From assembly GCA_016124845.1 (NCBI GenBank), contig WGMW01000033.1, positions 62,001 to 126,000 of the forward strand: DNA of 64,000 bases, given 5' to 3'. Source of the stretch: Flavobacteriales bacterium (GTDB lineage: Bacteria > Bacteroidota > Bacteroidia > UBA10329). The notes beneath the pieces are model-generated. The model saw only the letters and a list, made by a program, of their open reading frames with translations. It made no database searches and was not told the DNA's origin. Shown here piece after piece: positions 20,458 through 25,219 of this stretch; positions within the stretch are counted from its first letter, which is position 1; each line of letters opens with the position of its first letter. The position numbers were made by a program, and so were the translations under genes.

Positions 20458-22343
20458 GGCAGTCCGACCTTTCCGTTCATGTGATAGATCAGTTCGTTAT
20501 TGTCAAGCATTAATTGAACTGCTTTAAGTATCTCTTTTTCAGGACGTTCAACCTTTTCGAAAAGTTCATCAATACTTGTTTCCGAACCGATGTTAGACTT
20601 CACGAGGTCGATGTCTTTCTCATCCAGCGAAAGCTTAGAAAGTCCTCGACACACATCACATTTTCCGCAGTGTTTGCTTTCCATCTCTCCGAAATATTTG
20701 AGCAGCATCTGACTTCGGCAGACCTTATCACTTTCCACAAAATGAATAGCTGCATTGATGCGGTCCTTGATAAGTTGAATGCGCAATTCGTAAACCTCTT
20801 TCGAAAGGTAAATGTCCTGTTTGCGAACGCGGCCACCCACAAATGTGAGCTTCGGTAGTCCGGTTGAGGGTCTGTAGTCGATAACCTTCAAACCATGCAG
20901 TTTTTGCAGAATAGCGGTTGCCTGTTCCAACGAATAACCAGAACGTTTGGCGATGAGTTGTTCGTTTATTGGAACGAATTCTTCGAACAGTCTTCCATAG
21001 GAACGTAGCAACACCTTGGTCAATCGGTTCACCTTCGGATTGCGCATTTCTAAATCGTATAGCGTATCGTGATTGACGAGAATCTGTAGTGACGAACGCG
21101 GGTCCGAATTGGACGAAACCTGCAAAACATCTGCCTTTTCCAAGAACGAAATGGATTTCATTACCTCATTGGGTTTCCATTTGTAGCGGTCGCAGAAAGC
21201 GGCAAGGTCAAAGTCGAACCAAACGTCTTCACCGCTTCCTTCTGCCAGTTGGAAATAACTGCCCAATGCATAATACATTTCCTTGATGCGTTCGCGGGTT
21301 GGGAATTCGTTCTCCAAGCGCTTCTTCAGTTCGGTGATGTCTTTCTCTCCAACAAGTGCCACCGCATAGCTCTCTTTGCCATCGCGCCCTGCGCGGCCAG
21401 CTTCTTGAAAGTATGCCTCCAAACTGTCTGGGAAACCGAGATGAATGACCAAACGTACATCGGGTTTGTCGATACCCATTCCGAAGGCATTCGTAGAAAC
21501 GATAATTCGCGTCTTATCATTGATCCAATCATTCTGGCGTGTCTGTCGTTCCTCAAATGAAAGTCCTGCATGGTAGAACGAAGCCGAAAGCTTTTGTGAT
21601 TGCAGAAACTGCGCAACTTCCTTGGTTCGTCTCCGATTTCGAACATAGATGATGGCACTTCCAGATGTTTTCTCCAACACGCGCAGCATGCGTCCTTTCA
21701 GGTCATCTTCTCGCAGCACCATGTAAGAAAGGTTTTCGCGAGCGAACGATTTTCTAATGACGTTCTTCTTTTTGAACGCCAGTTTTTCCTGAATGTCTTC
21801 CACAACTTTCGGTGTGGCGGTGGCGGTCAGAGCAAGCACAGGAACTTTCGGTAGTAGTTCTCTTATTTCCGCTATCTGTAAATAGGGCGGGCGAAAGTCA
21901 TAACCCCATTGCGAGATGCAATGTGCCTCATCCACCGCAATCAGATTCACGTTCATTTTCTGAAGCCGCACTTGCACAATTTCTGTCCGCAAGCGCTCAG
22001 GACTCATGTACAGAAACTTCACATCTCCATACACGCAATTGTCCAGAATGGTGTCTATCTGCGAGAAGTGCAGCCCCGAATGCAGCGCCACCGCATTGAT
22101 ACCTTTCTTCTTCAGGTTTTCCACCTGATCTTTCATCAACGCAATGAGTGGCGAAATGACGATACAAATGCCATCCATGCACAGCACTGGAACTTGAAAA
22201 CAGATGGATTTTCCACCTCCAGTAGGCAGCAAGGCCAACACGTCTCTGCCATCCAAAGCCTCTTGAATGATCTCGCGCTGCTGCGCACGAAATGCATCAA
22301 AACCCCAGTATTGTTTGAGTATGGATTCTGGCGTAACGCTCAT
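20454..22343 (-). CDS. recQ: ATP-dependent DNA helicase RecQ-like
   Basis: A 629-residue SF2 helicase: Walker A 'LLPTGGGKSICFQVP', DEAH box in 'AVDEAHCISQWGYDFRPPY', 'ALTATATP', motif V/VI 'TNAFGMGIDKPDVR' and 'EAGRAGRDGKES'. A zinc-binding cluster ('CRSQMLLKYFG...HCGKCDVC') lies far downstream at ~530-560, and only ~75 residues follow it, so there is no HRDC domain. It unwinds DNA in repair and recombination. The first 22 codons are duplicated as a relic at 23969-24046 on the far side of the hipBST genes. The start now lies 27 bp after the hipT stop. Confidence 0.93.
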   Translation of the reverse strand: MSVTPESILKQYWGFDAFRAQQREIIQEALDGRDVLALLPTGGGKSICFQVPVLCMDGICIVISPLIALMKDQVENLKKKGINAVALHSGLHFSQIDTILDNCVYGDVKFLYMSPERLRTEIVQVRLQKMNVNLIAVDEAHCISQWGYDFRPPYLQIAEIRELLPKVPVLALTATATPKVVEDIQEKLAFKKKNVIRKSFARENLSYMVLREDDLKGRMLRVLEKTSGSAIIYVRNRRRTKEVAQFLQSQKLSASFYHAGLSFEERQTRQNDWINDKTRIIVSTNAFGMGIDKPDVRLVIHLGFPDSLEAYFQEAGRAGRDGKESYAVALVGEKDITELKKRLENEFPTRERIKEMYYALGSYFQLAEGSGEDVWFDFDLAAFCDRYKWKPNEVMKSISFLEKADVLQVSSNSDPRSSLQILVNHDTLYDLEMRNPKVNRLTKVLLRSYGRLFEEFVPINEQLIAKRSGYSLEQATAILQKLHGLKVIDYRPSTGLPKLTFVGGRVRKQDIYLSKEVYELRIQLIKDRINAAIHFVESDKVCRSQMLLKYFGEMESKHCGKCDVCRGLSKLSLDEKDIDLVKSNIGSETSIDELFEKVERPEKEILKAVQLMLDNNELIYHMNGKVGLP

Positions 22344-22359
22344 CTACGCCAAAGATAGA
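22277..22359. repeat. Direct repeat left copy (recQ start)
   Basis: These 83 bp cover the first 22 codons of recQ plus 16 bp upstream. They match 23980-24062 at 79 of 83 positions, in the same orientation, and flank the hipBST genes. See the finding on the recQ insertion. Confidence 0.93.
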
Positions 22360-22370
22360 TGGTTGTGGAG

Positions 22371-23315
22371 CTATGAGAGATGCAATTGGGAATATCGCTG
22401 ATCAAGCAGTTGGCCGTAAGCCGACTTCATTTCGTCCGAAAGAAACGAGTCATTGAGAAGTTTGACGGCTTTCGGTCGGTTGCGCTTCATGCGATTGAAT
22501 GCACTTTCCATCTGTTTGTCCGTAAGTCCAAGCCCATTGCCGAATCGGTTAAAATGTTCTCGTTGGAGTTTTCTTTTCTTTCCCGCCAGCGTCAACGCCA
22601 ATTCTTCTTGGTCGTCTGGAAGAATGACGGCAACGTTCAGCAGATCATAGGCAGGAGCAAGCATCCAGCCCGATGCACTTTCTATCATCGAAAAGTTCTT
22701 TAGGTGCATGTCATTGTTCCCTGTCAAGAAGGAAAACAGGGTCAGTTCGAAGAAAAGGATCTTGTCAAGAAGGGTATTGCTCGAATAACTGTCGAGTGCC
22801 TTGCCGACCTTTTCCATGGAACTTCTGTACTTGTCAAAGGCTTCGGTGACCTGAAACATATCGAGCATGTGAATCTTCTCTCCGCTGTCAGTTCTGTCAA
22901 TGCGTTTAGTGATGTATGACAGTTCGCCAGAGGCCAGCCGAATGAGGGAAGAGGGAACCACGCGAATACCGAAAGCCTCAGCAATGCGCATGGTGACGTG
23001 TTCGTTCTCAGGCATTTGAGGAAATCGGTCGGATGGTGGTTTGAAGATGTATTGGCCGCCAAGCGCACCGACAACGGTCAGTCGTGCATCCGCTTTTTTT
23101 CTGGCGGTTGTTACCAACGACATGGACAATTTGGGCTGCACACCAGGAACGGTTACGCTGCGTTCAACCACCTGCTTGGCCAGCTCATCCATCTGATTCA
23201 ATGAATATTCGATGGTCGGTGGTTGGCGTGTGCCGAAAAACTCTACGGAGCATTTCTCGTGGAAGTCGGCATCACCATCCAACGGCTGATAACAGTAAAG
23301 GCATTTACGCGACAT
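22371..23315 (-). CDS. hipT: HipT-like Ser/Thr kinase toxin (HipA C-terminal core)
   Basis: 314 residues from ATG 23315. A small Cys-His segment ('CLYCYQPL...FHEKC', Cys5/Cys8/Cys22) heads the protein, as in many Bacteroidota HipA-like proteins. The kinase core has a putative autophosphorylation motif Ser64-Met-Ser66 in 'VQPKLSMSL', Lys92 in 'YIFKP', catalytic Asp202/Asn207 in 'GNNDMHLKN', and metal Asp224 in 'APAYDLLN'. It lacks the HipA N-subdomain, which is encoded by the separate upstream gene, the layout of tripartite HipBST. Known HipT phosphorylates a tRNA synthetase; the target here is unknown. Confidence 0.88.
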   Translation of the reverse strand: MSRKCLYCYQPLDGDADFHEKCSVEFFGTRQPPTIEYSLNQMDELAKQVVERSVTVPGVQPKLSMSLVTTARKKADARLTVVGALGGQYIFKPPSDRFPQMPENEHVTMRIAEAFGIRVVPSSLIRLASGELSYITKRIDRTDSGEKIHMLDMFQVTEAFDKYRSSMEKVGKALDSYSSNTLLDKILFFELTLFSFLTGNNDMHLKNFSMIESASGWMLAPAYDLLNVAVILPDDQEELALTLAGKKRKLQREHFNRFGNGLGLTDKQMESAFNRMKRNRPKAVKLLNDSFLSDEMKSAYGQLLDQRYSQLHLS

Positions 23316-23640
23316 CTTCCGTAGGAATTGGTTCGACACTTACCGCACCGATGCAGTTCTGGCAGCAGGCCAGTAGAAGTCCCATACGGTCGTTGCGGTT
23401 GATCTTCCAGTTCTTAGACGCAATATCGAGCAGCCAGCCTTCGGGTATCAGGCCTTCGAAAAACGGGAACAGCCGATTGTCTTGATAAGGACTGTCGGTA
23501 ACAGGCATGGTGAAGGTGATCGGTCGGTTCGGATGTTTTTTCACATACGAAGCATCGTACCGAAAGACAAATTCACCATCGTTGGTTTCGGTGATCGTTC
23601 CTGCCAAGCTGTTCTTGTAAAACACCTTTCCGCTTCTCAT
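23305..23640 (-). CDS. hipS: HipS-like antitoxin (detached HipA N-subdomain)
   Basis: A 111-residue protein matching only the N-subdomain of HipA ('GKVFYKNSLAGTITETNDGEFVFRYDASY', 'PITFTMPVT', 'LFPFFEGLIPEGWLLD'). In E. coli HipBST, HipS, not HipB, neutralises HipT by inserting a Trp into its active site; Trp69 in 'PEGWLL' is the natural candidate here (inference from family). The start overlaps the hipB stop by 4 bp; its end overlaps the hipT start by 11 bp, so all three are co-translated. Confidence 0.88.
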   Translation of the reverse strand: MRSGKVFYKNSLAGTITETNDGEFVFRYDASYVKKHPNRPITFTMPVTDSPYQDNRLFPFFEGLIPEGWLLDIASKNWKINRNDRMGLLLACCQNCIGAVSVEPIPTEDVA

Positions 23641-23846
23641 CTGCTCAGGTCTTTGCTGTTCACAGGAGCAAGTTCATGCCCGAACATGCGTAAGACAAGG
23701 TTCACCTTTTTCATATTCAGGTTGGTTTTTCCCTGTTCTATTTTGCGAACCACCGTAAGTGCCACACCAGCGCGTTCTGCAAACTCTTCCTGTGTGAGGT
23801 TCACCTCCTTTCTCCGCGCTTTAACAAACTCAGCCAATCCTTTCAT
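23637..23846 (-). CDS. hipB: HipB-like XRE-family transcriptional regulator
   Basis: A 69-residue helix-turn-helix protein: 'GLAEFVKARRKEVNLTQEEFAERAGVALTVVRKIEQGKTNLNMKKV'. The HTH recognition region is 'ALTVVRKIEQGKTN'. It is the first gene of the hipBST operon and probably represses it by binding palindromes at 23845-23946. The ATG overlaps the first of these palindromes, so bound HipB would cover the start codon and the promoter. Confidence 0.92.
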   Translation of the reverse strand: MKGLAEFVKARRKEVNLTQEEFAERAGVALTVVRKIEQGKTNLNMKKVNLVLRMFGHELAPVNSKDLSR

Positions 23847-23946
23847 TATATGCTGATTGATATAATTTAATGTAAAAATAAAGAATTATATGTTATGAGA
23901 TATAATTTGCATTACCAAATCTTATTTATATGTAAATAGATATAGA
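23845..23946 (-). promoter_or_regulatory. Three phased hip-type operators and hipB promoter
   Basis: ATTATAT-N8-ATATAAT occurs at 23845-23866 and at 23885-23906. A degenerate copy (TTTATAT-N8-ATATAGA) is at 23925-23946. The starts are exactly 40 bp apart. The classical E. coli hip operator is also an inverted repeat with an 8-nt spacer (TATCC-N8-GGATA). A promoter fits between them on the minus strand: TTTG (23916-23919), 20 nt, TAACATAT (23888-23895), so the -7 box lies inside the second operator. Confidence 0.83.
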
Positions 23947-23968
23947 AACAGTAGTCTGAACAGGCTGT

Positions 23969-24046
23969 TCAGGTCTGCGGCTGCTGCGCACGAAATCCAT
24001 CAAAACCCCAGTATTGTTTGAGTATGGATTCTGGCGTGGCACTCAT
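23969..24046 (-). pseudogene. recQ 5'-end relic
   Basis: An ATG at 24046 opens 25 codons beginning 'MSATPESILKQYWGFDGFRAQQ', identical to the intact RecQ N-terminus in 20 of 22 residues, then runs into PQT and a stop (TGA at 23969-23971). It sits 20 bp after the stop of the ABM-like gene, exactly where recQ would have begun before hipBST was inserted. Confidence 0.92.
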
Positions 24047-24062
24047 CTACGCCAAAGATAGA
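23980..24062. repeat. Direct repeat right copy (recQ start relic)
   Basis: 79 of 83 bases match 22277-22359. The mismatches are one in 'gaaat(g/c)cat' and three in the 'gcgt..c.ct' codons. A perfect 13-bp palindrome, gaacaggctgttc (23958-23970), borders it on the hip side. Confidence 0.93.
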
Positions 24063-24065
24063 GTG

Positions 24066-24356
24066 TTAATGCCCGCTATCTACGGTCGACCAAGCATGCG
24101 CTGGAACCGAGAAAAGTGTTTTGGTCACTTTCCACGTGTTGCGGAAAAGGTCAGATTCGCGGTAGGCTTCCAAGGCATCTTCGGTTTCCCACTTGCTGAT
24201 GGTGAAGAACACGTACGGACGGTACTTGTCGCGCACAAGTTCAAGGCTACGGCAGCCATCGAATGCACGGATCTTGGGGCCGCTCACCTCAAAGGTTTTC
24301 AAAAATTCATCTACCAAATGCTCTTGGAAAGTAAGCTGTACAATGCGCGTTATCAT
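24066..24356 (-). CDS. Antibiotic-biosynthesis-monooxygenase-like (ABM/dimeric ferredoxin fold) protein
   Basis: A 96-residue small protein: 'MITRIVQLTFQEHLVDEFLKTF', 'IRAFDGCRSLELVRDKYRPYVFFTISKWETEDALEAYRES' and 'LFRNTW' match the ABM fold with its conserved 'FxxxxxWxxxxAhxxHxxS' pattern. These proteins dimerise; the substrate is unknown. The start overlaps the stop of the SAM hydrolase gene by 4 bp. Before the hip insertion, recQ probably followed it directly. Confidence 0.85.
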   Translation of the reverse strand: MITRIVQLTFQEHLVDEFLKTFEVSGPKIRAFDGCRSLELVRDKYRPYVFFTISKWETEDALEAYRESDLFRNTWKVTKTLFSVPAHAWSTVDSGH

Positions 24357-25135
24357 CTGAACTCAATACTTATGACGTCCTCATGCTTTACGCCCAAAAG
24401 TTGTGCTGCACTCGAACGGTTAATGGCTATCTCCAGTAATCCTGTAGCTCCAAATAAAGCCATTTTTTCCCCATTTGGCACATCCGAATACGATTCGAAG
24501 ATGCGATTGATGACATGTTGTTCTTTGCGAAAGCGGATTTCGAACGGACGTCCCTGACCAACGGTCTGAAAAAGACCACGGTCTATGTTGGTGATGATGT
24601 TGCCGTACACATCGATATGAATGGCCAGTCCGCGAATGGTCGAACCATCGATGGTTGGAACGAATTGCGTCCGCTCGTTCAGTATCTGTGCTGGTCTGCC
24701 AAGAATTTCCATGATTCCGCCTTTGGCGAGATGACAGGCAGCAACGGAGAAAATATCCCGTGTAGGGAAGATGACCGATGTGGCTGTTTGCGTGATCATG
24801 CTCAGGTCGAAGATCTTGGTGGGTTCGCGATCGAAGATGAGCGGAAACATGCCGTTGTCTGCACCGATGAAGTACTGTCCTTTGAATTCAACCACCAAGT
24901 GGTTGATGCGCTCATTGCGGTTCGGACTCACACCAATAAGATGCACCGTTCCTTTCGGAAAATCGGGATACGAGTTACGAACAACCATGGCCGCTTCAGG
25001 GATGTAGAATGACTTCACCTCATGCGATAGATCTACGATCTTGGCCTCGGGAAATTGCTTGTAAATAGCGCCTTTCAGAACACCAACATAATGGTCGCGA
25101 TGACCCATGTCTGTCGTTAATGTGATTATCGACAT
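24353..25135 (-). CDS. SAM hydroxide adenosyltransferase (DUF62 family)
   Basis: 260 residues from ATG 25135 (an upstream ATG at 25204 would add 23 unconserved residues). 'IITLTTDMGHRDHYVGVLKGAI' starts the fluorinase/chlorinase-like fold; 'IVDLSHEV', 'GTVHLIGVSPNR', 'YFIGADNGMFPLIF' and 'HIDVYGNIITNID' follow. DUF62 enzymes hydrolyse S-adenosylmethionine to adenosine and methionine using activated water. It precedes the ABM-like gene and is divergent from phoH. Confidence 0.88.
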   Translation of the reverse strand: MSIITLTTDMGHRDHYVGVLKGAIYKQFPEAKIVDLSHEVKSFYIPEAAMVVRNSYPDFPKGTVHLIGVSPNRNERINHLVVEFKGQYFIGADNGMFPLIFDREPTKIFDLSMITQTATSVIFPTRDIFSVAACHLAKGGIMEILGRPAQILNERTQFVPTIDGSTIRGLAIHIDVYGNIITNIDRGLFQTVGQGRPFEIRFRKEQHVINRIFESYSDVPNGEKMALFGATGLLEIAINRSSAAQLLGVKHEDVISIEFR

Positions 25136-25188
25136 CTGTTGGTTAAATGGAGGTTTTTTCGGTGAGTGCTGAGGGCAATTTACGTTAC

Positions 25189-25219
25189 TTTGTAACCGTT
25201 CCAAAGCTACATAATAAGC
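25189..25219 (+). promoter_or_regulatory. Putative promoter of phoH
   Basis: TTTG (25189-25192), exactly 19 nt, then TAATAAGC (25212-25219), a partial match to TAnnTTTG. It lies 41 nt before the TTG start of phoH and inside the divergent gap. Confidence 0.55.

What the first reader, a model, noticed from the sequence alone, without database searches (positions are those of the whole stretch)
23845..23946. Three hip-type operators spaced exactly 40 bp apart
ATTATAT-N8-ATATAAT occurs twice and a degenerate third copy follows; starts are at 23845, 23885 and 23925. Forty bp is close to four helix turns, so three HipB dimers would sit on one DNA face. The N8 spacer matches the classical hip operator while the half-site sequence is different. 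The first operator covers the hipB start codon and the second overlaps the promoter -7 box.
Basis: seen in the sequence. Interest (0 to 1): 0.68.

Follow-up and report, generated by a model that had tools for sequence, protein, structure and literature searches.

The report
HipBST operator array at 40-bp pitch
In front of a bacterial toxin-antitoxin operon lie three copies of a DNA-binding site exactly 40 base pairs apart; nearly every related operon examined across the Bacteroidota keeps that spacing, even where the site sequence has changed, which suggests that the repressor complexes on neighbouring sites have to fit together.

Summary
ATTATAT-N8-ATATAAT lies at 23845-23866 and 23885-23906, and a third site with a perfect TATAT-N8-ATATA core at 23925-23946, spaced 40/40 bp. 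The operon downstream is a tripartite hipB-hipS-hipT (HipBST) module whose nearest solved relatives are the Legionella HipBST proteins. In 84 orthologous loci plus the window, 162 of 167 adjacent operator spacings are 39-41 bp (145 exactly 40). The pitch holds where the array moves relative to the start codon, where a fourth site is added, and in more distant HipBs that read other half-sites (TACCC-N4-GGGTA; TATAC-N7-GTATA). A remoter group has 61-62 bp. Half-site sequence follows the HipB recognition helix, so HipB is the probable reader. Best explanation: HipB autorepression through a fixed-pitch three-operator array, probably with contacts between neighbouring complexes; no binding was tested. 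Multi-operator HipB autoregulation is known (E. coli hipBA, Legionella hipBST), so this is a new variant of a known kind. The module is an insertion between an ABM-domain gene and recQ.

The parts
23845..23866 (-). operator O1, ATTATAT-N8-ATATAAT; overlaps the hipB start codon (23846-23844)
   Evidence: core columns near-invariant in 56 aligned loci
23885..23906 (-). operator O2, ATTATAT-N8-ATATAAT; covers the -33 region of the predicted promoter
23925..23946 (-). operator O3, core TATAT-N8-ATATA perfect, outer bases off consensus; upstream of the promoter
23873..23880 (-). predicted sigma-ABfr -7 box (TATTTTTA here; TATATTTG consensus in relatives); transcription start expected near 23869
   Evidence: column frequencies; TAnnTTTG consensus from PMC7366714
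23637..23846 (-). hipB, 69-aa Cro-type HTH repressor; recognition helix GVALTVVRK
   Evidence: HTH_3, couple_hipB slightly below cut-off, fold best match HipB(Lp) 8ezt Z 10.3
23305..23640 (-). hipS, HipA N-subdomain-1-like antitoxin
   Evidence: Couple_hipA/TIGR03071; HipS(Lp) E 6e-15
22371..23339 (-). hipT, HipA_C kinase without N-subdomain 1; probable true start ATG at 23315
   Evidence: HipA_C; HipT(Lp) E 6e-47; kinase motifs and Met9 conserved in 81 sequences
22277..22359 (.). recQ 5'-end copy belonging to intact recQ, one arm of an 83-bp direct repeat flanking the hip cassette
23980..24062 (.). recQ 5'-end remnant, other arm of the direct repeat (79/83 identical)

Best explanation
The three sites are the operators of an autoregulated HipBST toxin-antitoxin operon. 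HipB dimers bind each TATAT-N8-ATATA site through the recognition helix (inferred). O1 covers the expected transcription start to the start codon and O2 covers the -33 region, so binding to either would shut out RNA polymerase; O3 lies upstream of the promoter and is unlikely to act that way alone. The near-invariant 40-bp pitch, kept between O2 and O3 and kept when the array moves relative to the start codon, most likely exists because HipB-HipS-HipT complexes on neighbouring operators contact each other, giving cooperative repression that depends on the HipB:HipS:HipT ratio. Shown here: the operon, the sites, their conservation, the pitch, the correspondence of half-site with recognition helix. 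Inferred: HipB binding, repression (about 0.9 likely), cooperative contacts (about 0.6 likely).
For: Exact sites and 40/40 spacing. Conservation in 85 loci: 252 sites, spacing 39 (4), 40 (145), 41 (13) of 167; null 0.035% for one pair, none for two. Columns inside operators reach up to 2 bits, spacers mostly 0.1-0.7. Array shifted by about 19 bp from the start codon in L068-L070, L073, L083, L133, L139 with 40-41 bp kept; fourth site 40-41 bp further in L111, L119, L123, L143, L144. HipBs 40-56% identical read TATACCC-N4-GGGTATA at 40-42 bp (77 of 78 spacings, 38 loci), so the pitch survives replacement of the AT-rich half-sites. Recognition helix tracks operator: ALTVxRK with TATAT, GLRFxRE with TACCC, GIHFIRD with TATAC-N7-GTATA (L018, L026), NTLYK with TCACA...TGTGA; the TATAC pair is nested inside the TACCC group. 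Only two exact sites in the genome. Fold of HipB matches HipB of Legionella, Shewanella, E. coli. Published: HipB(Lp) binds three evenly spaced operators and forms HipB-HipT-DNA complexes (PMC10653801); HipB alone represses the E. coli hipBST promoter (PMC10627512).
Against: No binding, footprint or expression data exist for this system. The loci include close relatives, so 85 is not 85 independent observations, and the four operator classes are mostly clades, so only about three recognition-helix changes are independent. 40 bp is 3.81 turns at 10.5 bp/turn, about 70 degrees off a common face unless the DNA is bent or overwound. HipB(Lp) operators are described as possibly filled one at a time (PMC10653801), so contacts between neighbouring complexes are not assured. 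The sites are not perfectly symmetric (inner right C in 237 of 252, inner left G in only 91).
Confidence: 0.88

Rival explanations
1. The sites are HipB operators, but they are bound independently; the 40-bp pitch only reflects an ancestral tandem duplication of a 40-bp unit or promoter geometry, with no contact between neighbouring complexes.
For: HipB(Lp) operators showed gel-shift patterns read as possible intermediate occupancy (PMC10653801). O1-O2 straddle the promoter, which would fix one distance.
Against: The spacer sequences are nearly unconserved while the length is held to within 1 bp over the phylum and over a change of operator class; neutral indels would have blurred it. O2-O3 lies upstream of the promoter and is just as fixed. 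The -7 box to O1 centre distance is 21 bp in the TATAT class and 11 bp in most TACCC loci with a recognisable box, so pitch does not follow promoter geometry.
Confidence: 0.25
2. Phased AT-rich blocks act as a DNA curvature or UP-like element rather than as specific protein sites.
For: Window sites are purely A/T in their half-sites, and 40 bp is near four turns.
Against: Sites are near-palindromic with a nearly invariant C at one inner position, and orthologous arrays at the same pitch use GC-containing half-sites TACCC/GGGTA.
Confidence: 0.03
3. Another host factor, not HipB, reads the sites.
For: HipB binding has not been measured here.
Against: Half-site sequence changes together with the HipB recognition helix, the exact sites occur only at hipB in the genome, and HipB operators are established in other systems.
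Confidence: 0.04
4. The inverted repeat acts in RNA (leader hairpin over the start codon).
For: O1 covers the start codon.
Against: O2 and O3 lie upstream of the predicted transcription start and are equally conserved.
Confidence: 0.02

Closest known systems
HipBST of Legionella pneumophila (HipB/S/T(Lp); PMC10653801, PMC9325769)
   Same: Gene order hipB-hipS-hipT; nearest solved Hip relatives of all three proteins; three evenly spaced operators with an 18-nt core; asymmetric inverted repeats.
   Different: Inter-operator gaps of 53 bp there against 22 bp here (18-nt core to core); O1 there is 24 nt upstream of the start codon, here it overlaps it; operator sequence described as unlike hipBA operators, and I did not compare it base by base.
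E. coli K-12 hipBA operators TATCC-N8-GGATA (L146)
   Same: Several copies upstream of hipB, N8 spacer, 18-bp core, outer TAT shared; middle spacing 39 bp.
   Different: Outer spacings 28 bp, so the pitch is uneven; inner two bases CC instead of AT; HipA not split.
HipBST of E. coli O127:H6 (PMC10627512, PMC6581861)
   Same: Same three-gene layout; HipB alone represses.
   Different: HipT only E 3e-18 against 6e-47 for HipT(Lp); its operators were not compared here.

Membership tests
HipBST tripartite toxin-antitoxin module | Gene order hipB-hipS-hipT in one operon | tested here: met
   23846-22371 on the minus strand, overlapping genes, families
HipBST tripartite toxin-antitoxin module | HipS equals HipA N-subdomain 1 as a separate protein | tested here: met
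   Couple_hipA 1e-26, HipS(Lp) 6e-15
HipBST tripartite toxin-antitoxin module | HipT kinase core without N-subdomain 1, catalytic motifs kept | tested here: met
   HipA_C over 63-288; K100, GNNDMHLKNF, PAYDLLN invariant or nearly so
HipBST tripartite toxin-antitoxin module | Autophosphorylatable Ser beside the Gly-rich loop | tested here: inconclusive
   Equivalent position is Thr63 here; Ala in 47, Ser in 21, Thr in 13 of 81 sequences
HipBST tripartite toxin-antitoxin module | HipS neutralises HipT; HipT phosphorylates a target | not testable with these tools
   needs expression assays
HipB autoregulatory operators | Near-palindromic 18-bp sites in several copies upstream of hipB | tested here: met
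HipB autoregulatory operators | Bound by HipB | not testable with these tools
   only indirect: recognition helix follows operator class
Classical E. coli hip operator | Sequence TATCC-N8-GGATA | tested here: not met
   TATAT-N8-ATATA: same spacer and outer TAT, different inner bases

The most novel reading that the evidence does not exclude
The pitch of a hip operator array is set by a protein-protein interface between neighbouring HipBST complexes, so that the operon is repressed by a ladder-like assembly with a fixed step of about four (or, in another branch, about six) helical turns, conserved while DNA recognition was rewired several times.
Probability: 0.45. Interest if true: 0.68.

Novelty: new variant of a known kind. 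Interest (0 to 1): 0.5.

Why it matters
Operators of Bacteroidota HipBST systems appear undescribed in the papers I could search. The arrays give a ready comparative data set: several recognition-helix/half-site pairs for working out HipB specificity, and a spacing held over a phylum that predicts contact between repressor complexes and bears on how the toxin:antitoxin ratio feeds back on transcription. Both are directly testable with small constructs.

Tried and rejected
DNA curvature element: rejected because the pitch persists with GC-containing half-sites. RNA hairpin: rejected because two of three sites lie upstream of the predicted transcript. Regulation of other genes by the same sites: only two one-mismatch places elsewhere in the genome, not followed further. 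Sigma-70 promoter scan: no hit on the minus strand, as expected for Bacteroidota. An unbiased palindrome-pair finder worked for most distant loci but missed some and picked up AT-rich noise in others, so class-specific patterns were used for counts. Loci L196, L198, L200 with remote HipBs show no clear array. The Shewanella HipAB-DNA paper is not held.

Full report
What is there. A separate repeat finder returns the same three copies, spaced 40 and 40. In the whole 4.36-Mb genome these are the only two exact matches; two further places match with one mismatch.

What it belongs to. On the minus strand follow a 69-aa HTH protein (hipB), a 111-aa HipA N-terminal-domain protein (hipS) and a HipA_C kinase (hipT), with overlapping ends. 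This is a tripartite HipBST module. HipT matches HipT of Legionella pneumophila at E 6e-47, E. coli O127 HipT at 3e-18 and E. coli HipA at about 1e-5; HipS matches HipS(Lp) best. A model of HipB (mean pLDDT 92) has HipB(Lp) as its best solved match (Z 10.3, 67 residues, 3.3 A), followed by Shewanella HipB. Middling Z values are common for this small HTH fold, so the rank rather than the value is informative.

Conservation. The hipT protein retrieved 80 loci from named genomes; with eight from whole-genome searches and the window, 85 distinct upstream regions could be read. At a threshold of 9 of 10 core bases they hold 252 sites; 71 loci have three and 6 have four. Of 167 adjacent spacings, 145 are exactly 40 bp, 13 are 41 and 4 are 39. 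In shuffled upstream regions with the same dinucleotides a 39-41 bp pair occurs in 0.035% and two pairs in none; in real loci in 84 of 85 and 75 of 85. In 56 loci aligned without gaps, operator columns reach up to 2 bits while the spacers between operators mostly lie at 0.1-0.7 bits, apart from the -7 box and the bases next to the operators. Some of these loci are close relatives, so the effective number is smaller.

Anatomy of the promoter. The same columns show a TATATTTG box at 34 to 27 bases before the start codon. This is the Bacteroidota -7 consensus TAnnTTTG (PMC7366714). In the window it reads TATTTTTA at 23880-23873. Transcription should start near 23869; O1 then covers the start of the transcript and the start codon, O2 covers the -33 region, and O3 is wholly upstream (inference from the consensus, no start was mapped). 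The operators are not perfect palindromes: the inner right position is C in 237 of 252 sites, whereas its mirror is G in only 91; the copies tend to point the same way.

The pitch is independent of sequence and of position. In seven loci the array is about 19 bp further from the start codon, with 40-41 bp kept; five loci add a fourth site at another 40-41 bp. HipBs only 40-56% identical to this one use TATACCC-N4-GGGTATA: 77 of 78 spacings in 38 loci are 40-42 bp. Two HipBs nested among them in the tree use TATAC-N7-GTATA at 39-40 bp. A remoter group (NTLYK helix) uses TCACA...TGTGA at 61-62 bp, 20 of 20 spacings; in genomes G013, G026 and G075 the 370-400 bases between its hipB and the kinase leave room for a hipS (the hipS itself was not checked). 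E. coli K-12 hipBA has 28, 39, 28. The distance from -7 box to O1 centre is 21 bp in the TATAT class and 11 bp in 10 of the 12 TACCC loci with a recognisable box, a shift of about one helical turn, so the pitch does not follow from promoter geometry. 40, 40.6 and 61.2 bp are near whole turns at about 10.0-10.2 bp per turn but 0.13-0.19 of a turn short at 10.5; a common face is plausible, not shown.

Who reads it. The recognition helix follows the half-site: ALTVxRK with TATAT, GLRFxRE with TACCC, GIHFIRD with TATAC, NTLYK with TCACA. Because classes are largely clades this amounts to about three changes, but with the published binding of HipB to multi-operator arrays in E. coli and Legionella (PMC10653801, PMC10627512) HipB is by far the likeliest reader.

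Mechanism. Best supported is autorepression by HipB, strengthened or tuned by HipS/HipT through complexes on adjacent operators. That O3, which is unlikely to block polymerase alone, is held at the same pitch as O1 and O2 is the main argument for contact between neighbouring complexes. This last step is inferred.

Origin. In five genomes of the same genus (L148-L152) the gene corresponding to window 24353-25204, the ABM-like gene (24066-24356) and recQ are contiguous, with about 25 bp between the last two; in the window the hip module sits in that junction, flanked by an 83-bp direct repeat of the recQ 5' end (79/83 identical). The array therefore arrived with the module. (The names ABM-like and SAM-hydroxide-type for the two neighbours are from my reading of the translations, not from a family search.)

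Novelty. Several HipB operators per promoter, and three evenly spaced ones in HipBST, are known. The TATAT half-site, the 40-bp pitch conserved over a phylum and across changed specificities, and the start-codon overlap were not found in the papers searched; that library is open-licence only, so a prior description elsewhere cannot be excluded.

Noticed in passing
22277-22359 and 23980-24062: 83-bp direct repeat of the recQ 5' end (79/83 identical) flanks the hip module; five same-genus genomes have the uninterrupted junction, so the module is an insertion accompanied by a duplication of its target.
   Followed up: partly
23956-23972: Perfect inverted repeat CTGAACAG-C-CTGTTCAG at the upstream edge of the inserted module, between the recQ remnant and O3; terminator-like by scan.
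   Followed up: no
hipT residue 63 (window 23151-23153): The position equivalent to the autophosphorylated Ser150 of HipA is Ala in 47 of 81 sequences, so most members of this Bacteroidota branch cannot be controlled by phosphorylation at that residue.
   Followed up: partly
hipT residues 13-30 (window 23250-23303): CxxC...FHxxC motif, its first two cysteines present in 80 of 81 sequences, at the N-terminus of HipT: a possible small zinc-binding cap.
   Followed up: no
23315: Met9 of the hipT ORF is conserved in relatives, so the real hipT start is probably ATG at 23315, not GTG at 23339.
   Followed up: no
L205 75-1633 (same genome, another contig): A separate hipBA-like pair (95-aa HTH protein and 424-aa HipA-like kinase) with a different recognition helix.
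   Followed up: no
L201, upstream of its HTH gene: Two copies of AGCGCAAAATATTGCGC at 71 bp in front of a remote HipB-like gene, a further spacing class.
   Followed up: no
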